From Bacillota bacterium (lineage in GTDB: Bacteria; Bacillota; UBA4882; UBA10575): a DNA stretch of 64,000 bases. Positions 3,181 to 24,952 of the stretch are shown piece by piece. The stretch lies in the NCBI GenBank assembly GCA_012839115.1, contig DUNX01000038.1, forward strand, positions 1 to 64,000, written 5' to 3'. The notes below the pieces were generated by a model. It searched no databases, was not told the origin of the DNA, and saw nothing but the letters and a program-made list of their open reading frames with translations. Numbering within the stretch: the stretch's first letter is position 1; the number at the start of each line of letters is the position of its first letter. The translations under genes were made by a program, and so were the position numbers.

Positions 3181-3194
3181 CTGGAGGTGGTTTG

Positions 3195-5750
3195 ATGTCG
3201 AAGAAAATACGCGTCCACGAGCTAAGTAAAGAATTGGGGATCCAGAGCAAAGACTTGATCCGCATTTTAAATGAATTGGGCGCCGGAGTAAAAAACCACA
3301 TGAGTACGGTGGATGATCAGTATTTGGAACAGATCCGCCGGTCTTTCAATACCGGCGTCAAAAAACAACGCACACCTGTGAAAAAAGATAAACCGGAGCC
3401 CCCGCGGAAAGAGGACGCGCCACGCGTACCGGATCTGGAGAAGAAGGCAAAAGCGACCACCTCTTCTGAGAAAAAGCAACCGGTTGCGAAGAAGCCAACT
3501 GCTGCAACGAAAGCCAAACCTGTGAAAGAAGCAGCTGCGAAAACAATGGTGGACCGGCAAAAAACTACGGTAAAAAAAGCCAAGGAAAAGGAGGAACCTT
3601 CCCCCGGGAAAAAACCGGCTGCCGTAGCAAAACCGCAGCAACAGCCGGCTATGCCCCCCAAAAGACAGGAGACTGCCGTTGCCACCAGTAAGAAACCGGC
3701 GAGGCCTGCCAGTGGCGAAAAGCCGAAAGCCGCCGTTGCCCCGGGTAAACCGGCCGCGCGGGTGGAGGCCAAGAAGGAACGGTCTGTTCCTCCAGGTAAA
3801 GGCGGAGTAAGGCAAAAGCCGGCGGCGGGTGCGCACGGTGCGCACGAGAAGACGGTGAAAAAATTCCCAGAAAAAAAAGGGAAGGGAAGAGCGCCGTCGC
3901 CGCAGGCGCAAAGGCGTCCGCAGCGCCCGCCAGGAAGGAGACCGGGCAGGAAAGGAGCCCGTCCTTCGCAACCCACCACCAACGTTAAGTCGGTACAGAT
4001 CCCCGGCAGCATTACGGTAAAAGAGTTTGCCCAGGCGATAGAGGTGGCGGCGACTGAGGTAATCAAGAGACTGATCGCTTTGGGGGTTATGGCCGGGATT
4101 AACCAGGAGATTGATTTTGATACCGCCGCTTTGGTGGGCGAAGAGTTCGGCGTGAAAGTAACGGCCGCTCCTACCGAGGAAGAGATCCTTAAGGTGGAAG
4201 AGATCGACGACGACCCCGCTTCCCTCCAGCCGCGCTGGCCGGTGGTAACCATTATGGGCCATGTTGACCACGGAAAAACATCCCTGCTTGACGCCATCCG
4301 GGAGTCAAATGTCACCGCTTTGGAAGCCGGAGGCATTACCCAGCATATCGGCGCCTACCAAGTGGAAGTGAAAGGGAAAAAAGTTACTTTTGTGGATACC
4401 CCGGGGCATGAAGCCTTTACCGCCATGCGGGCCAGAGGCGCCCAGGTCACAGATATTGCCGTGCTGGTGGTAGCGGCGGATGACGGGGTAATGCCGCAGA
4501 CAGTAGAGGCGATCAACCACGCCAAAGCGGCCCAGATCCCAATTATTGTGGCGGTTAACAAGATCGATAAACCAGCTGCCAACCCGGACCGGGTGAAACA
4601 GGAACTGGTCCAGTACGAATTGGTCCCTGAAGACTGGGGCGGCGATACGGTCTTTGTGGAGGTTTCCGCCCTTAAAAAGCAAGGGTTGGACGAATTACTC
4701 GACATGATTCTTTTAGTCGCTGAATTGCGGGAATTAAGAGCCAATCCCAACCGTCCGGCCAAGGGAACGGTGATCGAGGCCAAACTGGATAAAGGCCGCG
4801 GCCCGGTGGCTACGGTCCTGGTCCAGAACGGTACCCTCAAGTTGGGGGATACAGTGATCGCCGGGATGTTCTCCGGTAAAGTCCGGGCTCTGGTCAATGA
4901 TAAAGGAAAACAAGTGCGCAAGGTCGGTCCTTCCGAGCCTGTGGAGATAATTGGCCTGGACGATCTCCCGGAAGCCGGCGACACTTTTTACGTTACCGAT
5001 GAAAAGATGGCCCGCCAGTTGGCAGAGAAAAGACAGCAGTTCCACAGGGAAAAAGAGATTAAAAAATACCAGCGGGTTAGTTTGGACGATCTTTTTGACC
5101 GGATTAAGGAGGGCCAGATCAAGGAGTTAAATATCATCCTCAAAGCCGATGTCCACGGGACGGTGGAGGCGACCCGCCAATCTTTGGAACAGTTGGCCAC
5201 CGATGAGGTGCGGGTCAGGGTGATCCATGGCGGCGTAGGCGCGGTTAATGAAAGCGATGTCATGCTGGCTTCCGCTTCCAACGCAGTGATTATTGGTTTT
5301 AATGTCCGGCCCGATCCTATCGCCAAACGCCTGGCGGAAAGAGAAAAGGTGGACATCCGCCTTTACCGGGTAATCTATAACATCATTGATGACGTGCAGA
5401 AGGCGATGGAAGGCATGCTGGCCCCCGAATACCATGAGGTTGTCTTGGGACGGGCGGAGGTCAGGGCCGTCTTTAAAGTACCGAAAGTCGGAAGTGTGGC
5501 CGGCAGTTATGTGACGGAAGGAAAGATCACCAGAAATGCCGAGGCTAGAGTGCTCAGGGATAATGTGGTCATTCATGAAGGCAAGATCGATAGTTTGAAG
5601 CGGTTTAAGGATGACGTCAGGGAAGTTGCCAGCGGTTTTGAGTGCGGTATAGGACTTGAGAAGTTCAACGACGTAAAAGAAGGCGATATCATCGAGGCTT
5701 TTATCATCGAAGCTGTTAAGAGAACAGGAACAACCGATACCGGGGGATGA
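3195..5750 (+). CDS. infB: translation initiation factor IF-2
   Basis: IF-2 is the GTPase that places initiator tRNA on the 30S subunit and promotes subunit joining. Residues 1-53 are the first IF2_N module, 54-265 a long Lys/Ala/Pro-rich linker, ~270-325 the second IF2_N module, and the GTPase domain starts with GHVDHGKTS (355-363), DTPGHE and NKID, followed by domains II-IV. ATG 3195 is preferred over TTG 3192 because GGAGGTGG ends only one base before the TTG. The linker includes GAHGAHEK, encoded by two tandem GGTGCGCAC copies near 3829. It is co-transcribed with rbfA. Confidence 0.96.
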
Positions 5751-8102: not shown

Positions 8103-9230
8103 GTGAAATCCTGGTTTTCCATTGCGAACATGCGCCGGGAATTGGGCGCGCACGCGCGCGGAGACCTTATGGTGACCATCGGCAATTTTGACGGTGTCCA
8201 CCGTGGCCACCAGCTTTTACTCAAGATACTGAAAGAAAAAGCGCAGGAAAATGGCTGGTTTAGCCTGGTTGTAACCTTCCGGGAACACCCCGCCGGCTTT
8301 TTACGGCAGGGTACCCCTTTGCTCTTAACAACAGTAGAAGAACGGTCCGCCGTCTTTAGCGGCTTGGGGTTGGACGGTTGCCTGGTTTTGGATTTCAACC
8401 AGGAACTGGCAAGCATGACTCCGGAGGAATTTTTGTCCCTGGCAAAGGATTGGGGCGCCCGGGGGTTTATTGTCGGGTACGATTTTCGTTTCGGCGCCGG
8501 GGCGGCCGGCGGGACCGGCGAGGTTTTGGAATTCTGCCGCCGCCACGGGTTGCTGGGGCAGGTCATCCCCCCGGTTAAGGTGGGAAGGGAGATCGTTTCC
8601 AGTTCCAGAATACGTGAGCTTCTCCAGGCCGGAGATCTGGCAAAGGCCAATCTGATGCTGGATCGCGCCTATATGATCACCGGGAGGGTGACCCACGGCG
8701 CCCGCCGCGGGCGGCTTTTGGGCTTTCCCACGGCCAACCTGGAATTGCCGGCAAACCGCTTGTTGCCCGGATCCGGGGTCTACCTTGTCCGGGTATTCTT
8801 TGACGGCCGGACCCACTTTGGCCTGGCCAATATCGGGGTGCGGCCGACTTTTTCCAGGACCCGGCCAGAGCCGGAAGGCCGGCTGGAGATAGAAAGCCGG
8901 CTCGAAACCGAAAATCAGTTAAAGACGGAAAACCAACCAGAGGCAGGAAACCAACTGAAGACAGAAGTCCATTCGGAGACAAATAACCAGCTAAAGGCGG
9001 AAAACGAGTTCAAGGCAGAAAACCGGCCAACAACAGAGATCCATCTCCTGGACGTGGCCGCGGATTTATACTACAAGACCATGGTTGTGGAGTTCTTGGC
9101 CTTTATCCGGAGGGAGCGGAAATTCCCTTCCGCCGCGGCGTTAGTCGCCCAGATGAAAAAGGACGAGCAGGCGGCGCGCAAGCTTCTGCAACGGCATTCT
9201 TTTTTTGCCAAGCAGACCCTGAGTGGTTAA
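8103..9230 (+). CDS. ribF: bifunctional riboflavin kinase/FMN adenylyltransferase with repeat insertion
   Basis: RibF converts riboflavin to FMN and FAD. The N-terminal adenylyltransferase has IGNFDGVHRGHQ (~22) and SSSRIRELL; the flavokinase domain has GRVTHGARRGRLLGFPTANLE. Between IGVRPTF and EIHLLD, normally joined by only a few residues, are about 60 residues of six-residue repeats (LKTENQ-like), making the protein 375 residues rather than ~310. The frame is intact, so expression is likely. The start is GTG 8103 after AAGGTGA. The segment GAHARGD near residue 17 is another product of an alternating CpG tract. It is the last gene before the tRNA. Confidence 0.93.
   Translation: MKSWFSIANMRRELGAHARGDLMVTIGNFDGVHRGHQLLLKILKEKAQENGWFSLVVTFREHPAGFLRQGTPLLLTTVEERSAVFSGLGLDGCLVLDFNQELASMTPEEFLSLAKDWGARGFIVGYDFRFGAGAAGGTGEVLEFCRRHGLLGQVIPPVKVGREIVSSSRIRELLQAGDLAKANLMLDRAYMITGRVTHGARRGRLLGFPTANLELPANRLLPGSGVYLVRVFFDGRTHFGLANIGVRPTFSRTRPEPEGRLEIESRLETENQLKTENQPEAGNQLKTEVHSETNNQLKAENEFKAENRPTTEIHLLDVAADLYYKTMVVEFLAFIRRERKFPSAAALVAQMKKDEQAARKLLQRHSFFAKQTLSG
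8862..9041 (+). repeat. ten 18-bp tandem repeats inside ribF
   Basis: Units start at 8862, 8880, 8898, 8916, 8934, 8952, 8970, 8988, 9006 and 9024. They are imperfect but phase-locked to six codons with consensus (R/Q)-L-K-x-E-N. Polar and charged residues predominate, suggesting an extended or helical solvent loop in the flavokinase domain. Confidence 0.88.
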
Positions 9231-9989: not shown

Positions 9990-11024
9990 TTGCTGTATCC
10001 TTTGCGGTTTGAACCAATATATAAAGAGCGGATCTGGGGCGGAACCGGCCTGCGGGATGAATTTGACCGGGAGCTTCCCAGCGATAAAATCGGTGAGAGT
10101 TGGGAGATTACCTGCAGGGATAATGGTGACAGCCGGGTGGCCGCCGGTCCCTTAAAGGGCAAATACTTAACGGAACTGGTTAACGATTTCGGCCCGGAGT
10201 TGTTGGGCAGGAAAATAGCCGGGGTTGTGTACGGGAGCGCACGCGGAGTTGCGCCCGGGGACACGCGCGGTGTCGCACACGGCGCGCGTGGGCGTTATGG
10301 TTTCCCGCTCTTATTGAAAATCCTCGATGCACGGGAGATCCTTTCCGTACAGGTGCACCCGGATAACGGGTTTGCCGCCACCCATGAAGGTTCTGCGGGA
10401 AAAAGCGAGGTCTGGTATATCCTGAAAGCCCGGCCGGGTGCGAAGATCATTTACGGGCTCAAGCCGGGAATTGCAAAGGAGGAGTTTATTACCGCCCTTG
10501 ACCGCGGCCAACTGGCGGAATGCCTGAATGAGGTGGAGGTCAAGCCGGGCGAGATCTATCCCATTCATCCCGGTCTAGTGCATGCGCTGGGGAAAGGGAT
10601 TATGGTCGTGGAATTACAGCAAAATTCCGACCTCACCTACCGGGTATTTGACTGGAACCGCACGGACGAGCAGGGGCGGGCCCGTCCTTTACACGTGGAA
10701 AAAGCACTGCAGGTTATTGAGTTTAGCAAAGCTCCGCCCCGGGGGTTTGATCCGGAAGAGGCGGACGGCAGTTTCTTATTGGAAAATGAATGTTTTTCCC
10801 TTTTGTATCAGCGGGTGGCAGGAGAAAAAAACATGAACCAAAGTCCTGAGACTTTTACCATCATAACCGTTGTGGCAGGAGAGGGAGAACTGCAGCATAA
10901 GGGAGGGGTTTATCCTTTATGGTACGGGGATTCCTATTTGCTCCCCGCCTGTCTCGGGCATTATACCCTCTGCGGCCGGATGAAACTCTTGTTTGGGTCG
11001 GCCAACAAGCCTTTACAAAAGTGA
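9990..11024 (+). CDS. manA: mannose-6-phosphate isomerase, class I
   Basis: A zinc enzyme interconverting mannose-6-phosphate and fructose-6-phosphate. Bacillus-type features are LRFEPIYKERIWGG at the start, the zinc/active-site motif LSVQVHPDN, the region EVWYILKARPGAKIIYG, the YPIHPGLVHALGKGIMVVELQQNSD cupin motif, and TYRVFDWNR. Residues ~81-102 (from YGSARGVAPGDTRG) are an insertion between KIAG and YGFPLLLKILDA that homologues lack; it is encoded by a dense CpG-rich tract. The start is TTG 9990, eight bases after AAGGAGGTG. The convergent GH130 phosphorylase suggests joint mannoside use. Confidence 0.92.
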   Translation: MLYPLRFEPIYKERIWGGTGLRDEFDRELPSDKIGESWEITCRDNGDSRVAAGPLKGKYLTELVNDFGPELLGRKIAGVVYGSARGVAPGDTRGVAHGARGRYGFPLLLKILDAREILSVQVHPDNGFAATHEGSAGKSEVWYILKARPGAKIIYGLKPGIAKEEFITALDRGQLAECLNEVEVKPGEIYPIHPGLVHALGKGIMVVELQQNSDLTYRVFDWNRTDEQGRARPLHVEKALQVIEFSKAPPRGFDPEEADGSFLLENECFSLLYQRVAGEKNMNQSPETFTIITVVAGEGELQHKGGVYPLWYGDSYLLPACLGHYTLCGRMKLLFGSANKPLQK

Positions 11025-23950: not shown

Positions 23951-24952
23951 ATGGCAGTTATTTCGATGAAGCAATTACTTGAAGCCGGGGTGCATTTTGG
24001 TCACCAGACCAGGCGTTGGAACCCGAAGATGGCTCCTTATATTTTTGCCGAACGCAACGGGATCTACATTATCGACCTGCAAAAAACCGTAAAAATGGTG
24101 GAAGAAGCCTATCATTTTGTGCGGAATTTGGCGGCCGAAGGCGGCAGTATTCTCTTTGTCGGCACCAAAAAGCAGGCCCAGGATGCCATCCGTGAAGAAG
24201 CCACAAGGTGCGGGATGTTCTACGTCTGCCACCGGTGGCTGGGCGGGATGTTAACCAATTTTCAGACCATCCGCTCACGGGTGGAGAGACTGAAAAAGAT
24301 TGAAAAAATGGCTGAAGACGGTTCCTTTGATTTGCTTCCGAAAAAAGAGGTCTTGCAGTTGGAAAAGGAACGGGCCCGCCTGGAGAAGTTTTTGAGCGGG
24401 GTCAAGGAAATGAACCGGCTGCCCGATGCGATTTTTGTTGTGGACCCGCGCAAAGAACGGATTGCGGTGGCAGAAGCAAGAAAGCTGGCGATCCCCATTA
24501 TCGCCATTGTCGATACCAACTGCGACCCCGATGAAGTGGATTATATTATCCCCGGGAATGACGATGCGATCAGGGCAGTTCGCCTTCTCTCCGGGAAGAT
24601 TGCCGACGCTGTGATTGAAGGACGCCAGGGCGAGCAAACGGCAGAAGCGGAGACTGCTCCGGCTGACACGGCTAGCCAAGCTAGCCAGGGGGAAGCCGCG
24701 GAAATTATAGAGGAAACCGAAGCAGCGGTTGAACCTGAGGAACCGGCCGCCGAAAAACCGGTGGCGACCAAGAAACCGGCGGCCAAGGAAAAACCGGTAA
24801 AAACCAAGGAACCGGCGGCCAAAGAAAAACCGGTAAAAACCAAGAAACCGGTTGCTGAAGAAGAACCGGTAGAAACCTTGGAACCGGCTGCCGGGGAAGA
24901 AACGGTAGAAACCGGGGAACCGGCGGCTGCAACAGCTGCGGAAGATAAGTAA
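23951..24952 (+). CDS. rpsB: 30S ribosomal protein S2 with repeated C-terminal extension
   Basis: Residues 1-225 are a complete S2: [94 protein letters not shown]. Normal S2 ends near residue 235-260; here ~100 extra residues rich in Glu, Lys, Pro and Ala follow, including four 12-residue repeats. The extension is in frame and acidic/basic mixed, probably disordered. AAGGAGGTGACC gives a strong ribosome site at ATG 23951. Confidence 0.95.
24785..24928 (+). repeat. four 36-bp tandem repeats in the 3' part of rpsB
   Basis: Units 24785-24820, 24821-24856, 24857-24892 and 24893-24928 encode (K/A/G)-E-(K/E)-(P/T)-V-(K/E)-T-x-x-P-A/V-A, residues 279-326 of S2. The first two units are nearly identical at DNA level; the later two are diverged toward Glu. 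Confidence 0.85.

What the first reader, a model, noticed from the sequence alone, without database searches (positions are those of the whole stretch)
8862..9041. Ten 18-bp tandem repeats expand the flavokinase domain of RibF
The units are exactly in register with six codons and lie between IGVRPTF and EIHLLD, where homologues have only a few residues. A coding minisatellite in an essential FMN/FAD enzyme could vary in length by slippage and tune stability or activity. It is not known from the RibF family as I remember it.
Basis: seen in the sequence. Interest (0 to 1): 0.6.

Follow-up and report, generated by a model that had tools for sequence, protein, structure and literature searches.

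The report
Repeat-expanded loop in RibF flavokinase
An essential vitamin-B2 enzyme of an uncultured bacterium has a mobile loop beside its active site that was stretched by repeated 18-letter DNA duplications (10 units here, 4 and 2 in sister species, 1 elsewhere); it is a real curiosity of protein evolution, most likely tolerated rather than a fast-changing switch.

Summary
RibF (8103-9230, 375 aa) carries ten degenerate 18-bp units at 8862-9041, in codon register. Lag-18 identity is 0.58 against a maximum of 0.47 in 2000 codon shuffles. Third-position identity exceeds what the repeated peptide alone would give (P = 0.003), so the units descend from DNA duplication.

The tenth unit (RPTTEI) is the native hexapeptide; its Glu312 aligns with CaFADS E268, the flavokinase catalytic base. 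The other nine units (54 aa) lengthen the L4c-FlapII loop between the PTF flavin-pocket motif and the catalytic Glu. The two other genomes of the genus have 4 and 2 units, other genera have 1; only this genus is expanded among 29 class and 153 matched phylum genomes. This excludes an assembly artefact.

The fast-slippage idea is not supported: units are about 38% diverged, exact matches between units reach only 8 bp, and the flanking enzyme is under purifying selection. The insert is predicted disordered and acidic. Other proteins of this genome (RpsB tail, IF-2 linker, ManA loop) are also longer than in sister species. Best reading: a neutral or weakly selected expansion of an already disordered flap in a working FAD synthetase.

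The parts
8103..9230 (+). ribF: bifunctional riboflavin kinase / FMN adenylyltransferase, 375 aa, GTG start
   Evidence: Pfam FAD_syn 2.7e-39 and Flavokinase 7.9e-37; TIGR00083 ribF above cut-off; Foldseek top hits S. pneumoniae SP_1110 (3op1), CaFADS and TmFADS; only RibF match in the genome
8727..8738 (+). PTAN motif (T210, N212), equivalent of CaFADS T208/N210 (ATP phosphates/metal)
   Evidence: invariant columns in A1; role from PMC2573891
8844..8852 (+). PTF of the flavin-pocket motif G-x-x-P-T-F, start of loop L4c-FlapII
   Evidence: sequence; motif 254-260 in CaFADS
8862..9023 (+). nine extra 18-bp units (54 aa, 13 Glu, net charge -6): the expansion relative to other genera
   Evidence: predicted disordered, pLDDT about 30-40
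9024..9041 (+). tenth unit RPTTEI = native hexapeptide, with catalytic Glu312 at codon 9036-9038
   Evidence: E312 invariant and aligned with CaFADS E268
8916..8933 (+). unit 4 QLKTEN, one base different from unit 3 of the sister species G002

Best explanation
This is an ordinary, active bifunctional FAD synthetase (RibF). The hexapeptide just before and including its flavokinase catalytic base was tandemly duplicated in DNA, in whole 18-bp steps, within one genus. Because 18 bp is six codons and the site is a flap that is already mobile and often disordered, the extra units stay in frame and loop out as a disordered acidic tether between the PTF strand and the strand carrying Glu312. Only the last copy is placed as the catalytic Glu. 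Unit number then drifted by gain or loss between species (10, 4, 2), and the units diverged while staying hydrophilic. The expansion most likely has little or mild effect on kinase activity, and is tolerated as part of a wider tendency of this genome to lengthen disordered protein segments. Shown: the repeat, its DNA origin, register, genus-limited distribution, alignment of the catalytic Glu, and purifying selection on the rest of the enzyme. Inferred: retained activity, disorder in solution, near-neutrality, and duplication by slippage or unequal recombination.
For: Ten in-frame units; DNA similarity beyond the peptide repeat. Genus series: G002 PTFSGN[RPETEG RTETES QLKTEN PPTTEI]YLLD, G001 PTFSSS[QPEAES RPKTEV]YLLD, other genera of the family PTFNQS[SPLLEV]YIFD. 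Orthologous units recognisable between G000 and G002 (4, 4, 1 and 3 differences of 18). Glu312 aligns with E268, the catalytic base (PMC2573891); this loop is L4c-FlapII, missing from electron density in several CaFADS crystals (PMC5428420). AlphaFold2 with 8 sequences: core mostly confident (70-95), insert 248-309 below 50, Glu312 in strand 310-315. Flanking dN/dS about 0.13-0.16 between G000 and G002 (dN 0.06, dS 0.38 and dN 0.09, dS 0.71). All catalytic motif residues present; single RibF in the genome. Other in-frame gains in the same genome: RpsB tail, IF-2 linker, ManA loop.
Against: Units keep Glu at position 5 in 8 of 10, and inner units have dN/dS near 0.2 (dN 0.39, dS 1.9; few sites), which hints at selection for the acidic, polar hexapeptide rather than pure neutrality. 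Kinase activity is not demonstrated. The structure prediction used a shallow alignment.
Confidence: 0.7

Rival explanations
1. The repeat is a selected functional insert: the acidic hexapeptide array gates the FlapII movement, mediates contacts between protomers or with other proteins, or changes stability, and its length tunes FMN supply.
For: The site is a substrate-responsive flap beside the active site, and flap residues modulate assembly and kinetics in CaFADS (PMC5428420). Hexapeptide register and polar character are kept (dN/dS near 0.2 between units). Present in all three genomes of the genus.
Against: Length varies fivefold in the genus, no conserved motif beyond x-x-x-x-E-x, insert predicted disordered; similar gains occur in unrelated proteins of the same genome.
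Confidence: 0.2
2. A contingency-type coding minisatellite: unit number changes often by slippage within populations and switches or tunes RibF.
For: Unit number differs between species in whole units.
Against: Units about 38% diverged, longest exact in-phase match 8 bp; orthologous units stable between species (dS 0.57, as in the flanks); steps of 18 bp cannot switch the frame.
Confidence: 0.05
3. A variant of the best explanation about direction only: the array is old, the genus ancestor had a long array, and G002 and G001 lost units (a contraction series rather than 1-2-4-10 growth).
For: Inner units of G000 differ more from each other (p 0.38, dS 1.9) than orthologous units differ between species (dS 0.57).
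Against: With 126 bp the estimates are poor; by a rough estimate from the flanking dS, relaxed evolution after a recent duplication could also give p 0.30-0.45.
Confidence: 0.4
4. Assembly or binning artefact.
For: The window is from a draft genome (148 contigs).
Against: Degenerate, non-identical units cannot come from collapsed or duplicated reads; separate genomes, one of them named record JAAYGG010000035.1, have in-register arrays in the same place.
Confidence: 0.01

Closest known systems
Bifunctional prokaryotic FAD synthetase RibF (CaFADS of Corynebacterium ammoniagenes, TmFADS of Thermotoga maritima)
   Same: Both domains, all catalytic motifs, fold (Foldseek E about 1e-27 to 1e-21)
   Different: 54 extra residues of hexapeptide repeat in loop L4c-FlapII; CaFADS has 7 residues between PTF and E268
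Lineage-specific loop insertion L3c (residues 231-246) of Corynebacterium/Mycobacterium FADS
   Same: Lineage-limited extra loop in the same kinase module; proposed to stabilise the dimer of trimers (PMC5428420)
   Different: Different loop, not described there as a repeat, not described as variable in unit number in what I read
Coding tandem repeats in disordered protein segments (PMC7230257 census)
   Same: In-frame tandem units in a predicted disordered segment
   Different: Sits inside a catalytic domain, between two active-site motifs of an essential enzyme, and its last unit carries the catalytic base

Membership tests
RibF, bifunctional riboflavin kinase/FMN adenylyltransferase | N-terminal FAD_syn and C-terminal Flavokinase domains | tested here: met
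   Pfam PF06574 and PF01687 above cut-offs; TIGR00083 above cut-off
RibF, bifunctional riboflavin kinase/FMN adenylyltransferase | Catalytic motif residues: GNFDGVHRGH, PTAN, G-x-x-PTF, catalytic Glu, Arg/Asp pair of the last helix | tested here: met
   Invariant columns incl. T210, N212, E312, R336, D354; E312 aligned to E268
RibF, bifunctional riboflavin kinase/FMN adenylyltransferase | Both enzyme activities | not testable with these tools
   needs purified protein
Hypervariable coding minisatellite (contingency locus) | Near-identical units able to slip | tested here: not met
   p about 0.38 among inner units, longest exact in-phase match 8 bp
Hypervariable coding minisatellite (contingency locus) | Unit number varies within a species | not testable with these tools
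   one genome per species held; between species it varies
Coding tandem repeat in a disordered segment | Units related by DNA duplication, in frame | tested here: met
Coding tandem repeat in a disordered segment | Segment disordered | tested here: inconclusive
   AlphaFold2 pLDDT 30-40 at 248-309 with a weak helix at 289-306; only 8 sequences

The most novel reading that the evidence does not exclude
The hexapeptide array is a selected, length-tunable acidic tether on the active-site flap of an essential kinase, made by repeatedly duplicating the peptide that carries the catalytic base, so that unit number sets flap dynamics and FMN supply in this genus.
Probability: 0.12. Interest if true: 0.65.

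Novelty: new variant of a known kind. Interest (0 to 1): 0.32.

Why it matters
It is a natural length series (1, 2, 4, 10 units) at one defined place, directly beside a catalytic base, in an essential enzyme with solved structures. It lets one test how much disordered insertion an active-site flap tolerates, and shows a route by which tandem duplication enters a catalytic domain. If near-neutral, as I think, it is a neat example rather than a new mechanism.

Tried and rejected
Dispersed or mobile repeat: the array DNA has no other copy in the genome (next E 0.69) and the peptide has none in the three genomes of the genus other than RibF itself. Pure peptide convergence or low complexity: rejected by the synonymous-codon test. 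RNA element: no Rfam match in the window except the downstream tRNA-Ala. Single-sequence AlphaFold model of the G002 protein: useless (mean pLDDT 37.6). Direction of change (growth or loss) could not be settled. Literature searches found no report of such repeats in RibF in the open-access library, which does not prove absence. One search was an empty script and carries no result.

Full report
Observation. RibF is encoded at 8103-9230 (+), 375 aa, with both Pfam domains and the TIGR00083 ribF model above its cut-off. Positions 8862-9041 contain ten 18-bp units in codon register. Lag-18 identity over 8856-9047 is 0.58, and about equal at lags 36 and 54; 2000 codon shuffles never exceeded 0.467 for any lag tested. 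The units are diverged enough that Tandem Repeats Finder misses the array. Resampling synonymous codons under the fixed peptide gives third-position lag-18 identity 0.36 +/- 0.06 against 0.56 observed (P = 0.003), so the units are related as DNA. In the window only the RpsB tail at 24.7-24.9 kb shows a comparable array.

Where it sits. Phmmer against the PDB aligns window Glu312, in the last unit RPTTEI, with E268 of CaFADS. E268 is invariant, proposed as the catalytic base, and its Ala mutant makes no FMN or FAD (PMC2573891). The upstream PTF belongs to the G-x-x-P-T-F flavin-pocket motif. The segment between is loop L4c-FlapII, which helps form the closed flavin site on ligand binding and lacks density at residues 259-264 in several CaFADS crystals (PMC5428420). 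The array therefore expands a naturally mobile active-site flap, and the repeated hexapeptide has the same phase as the native one whose fifth residue is the catalytic Glu; 8 of 10 units have Glu there.

Relatives. The two other genomes of the genus have four units (G002, the same as record JAAYGG010000035.1) and two units (G001) at the same place. Other genera of the family have a single hexapeptide, for example SPLLEV. In all 29 genomes held for the class and in 153 matched genomes of the phylum, the expansion was seen only in this genus. In the phylum search, which used an uninterrupted kinase domain as query, only this genus splits the alignment at the loop; elsewhere one alignment runs through the domain, and read by eye the net excess is at most about 10 residues over the whole domain. 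G000 units 1, 2, 4 and 10 are the evident counterparts of G002 units 1-4 (4, 4, 1 and 3 differences of 18). This excludes an assembly artefact.

Selection and age. Between G000 and G002 the flanks have dN 0.06, dS 0.38 and dN 0.09, dS 0.71; the orthologous units have dN 0.10, dS 0.57; the inner paralogous units of G000 have dN 0.39, dS 1.9. The enzyme is under purifying selection. The inner units are as diverged as, or more diverged than, the species are, so either the array is older than the species split and was shortened in the sisters, or the units evolve fast. The data do not decide. The longest exact in-phase match between units is 8 bp, so frequent slippage today is unlikely (inference).

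Structure. AlphaFold2 with eight sequences gives a mostly confident core (block pLDDT mostly 70-95) with Glu312 in strand 310-315, and pLDDT below 50 for 248-309 with a weak helix at 289-306. Foldseek finds S. pneumoniae SP_1110, CaFADS and TmFADS. The nine extra units have 13 Glu and net charge -6. The single-sequence model of the G002 protein failed.

Genome context. Among 58 window ORFs with a G002 counterpart, the largest internal in-frame gains are all in G000: an IF-2 linker (38 aa), the RibF loop (36 aa), a ManA loop (21 aa, weak 24-bp repeat), and the RpsB C-terminal tail (47 aa against G001; 36-bp units) (gene names by Pfam). A scan of 377 kb of G000 found few other arrays. A lineage-wide tendency to lengthen disordered segments explains the RibF case without a RibF-specific function; that link is an inference from four genes.

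Verdict. The repeat is real, genus-specific and oddly placed beside a catalytic base, but the enzyme is an ordinary RibF and the best reading is a tolerated expansion. Kinase activity, tuning and population variability remain untested.

Noticed in passing
window 24700-24952 (rpsB 23951-24952): Ribosomal protein S2 has a C-terminal tail of about five 36-bp repeats ([12 protein letters not shown]-like) that is not expanded in the two sister genomes (L050, L051).
   Followed up: partly
window about 3534-3647 (infB 3192-5750): IF-2 N-terminal linker is 38 aa longer than in G002 and about 19 aa longer than in G001.
   Followed up: partly
window 10233-10295: ManA-like phosphomannose isomerase has a 21-aa loop gain over G002 with a weak 24-bp duplication (SARGVAPGDTRGVAHGARG).
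   Followed up: partly
L067:7836-7960: Membrane-type protein without Pfam match has a degenerate 15-bp repeat (SETAV-like) in an apparent extramembrane stretch.
   Followed up: no
L052:16254-16548: Seven-base period array read as ATSNEQR repeats in one frame, possibly non-coding.
   Followed up: no
L057:8002-8276: 101-bp repeat directly after what looks like a tRNA 3' end, with hairpin-like GTTCCCC...GGGGAAC units.
   Followed up: no
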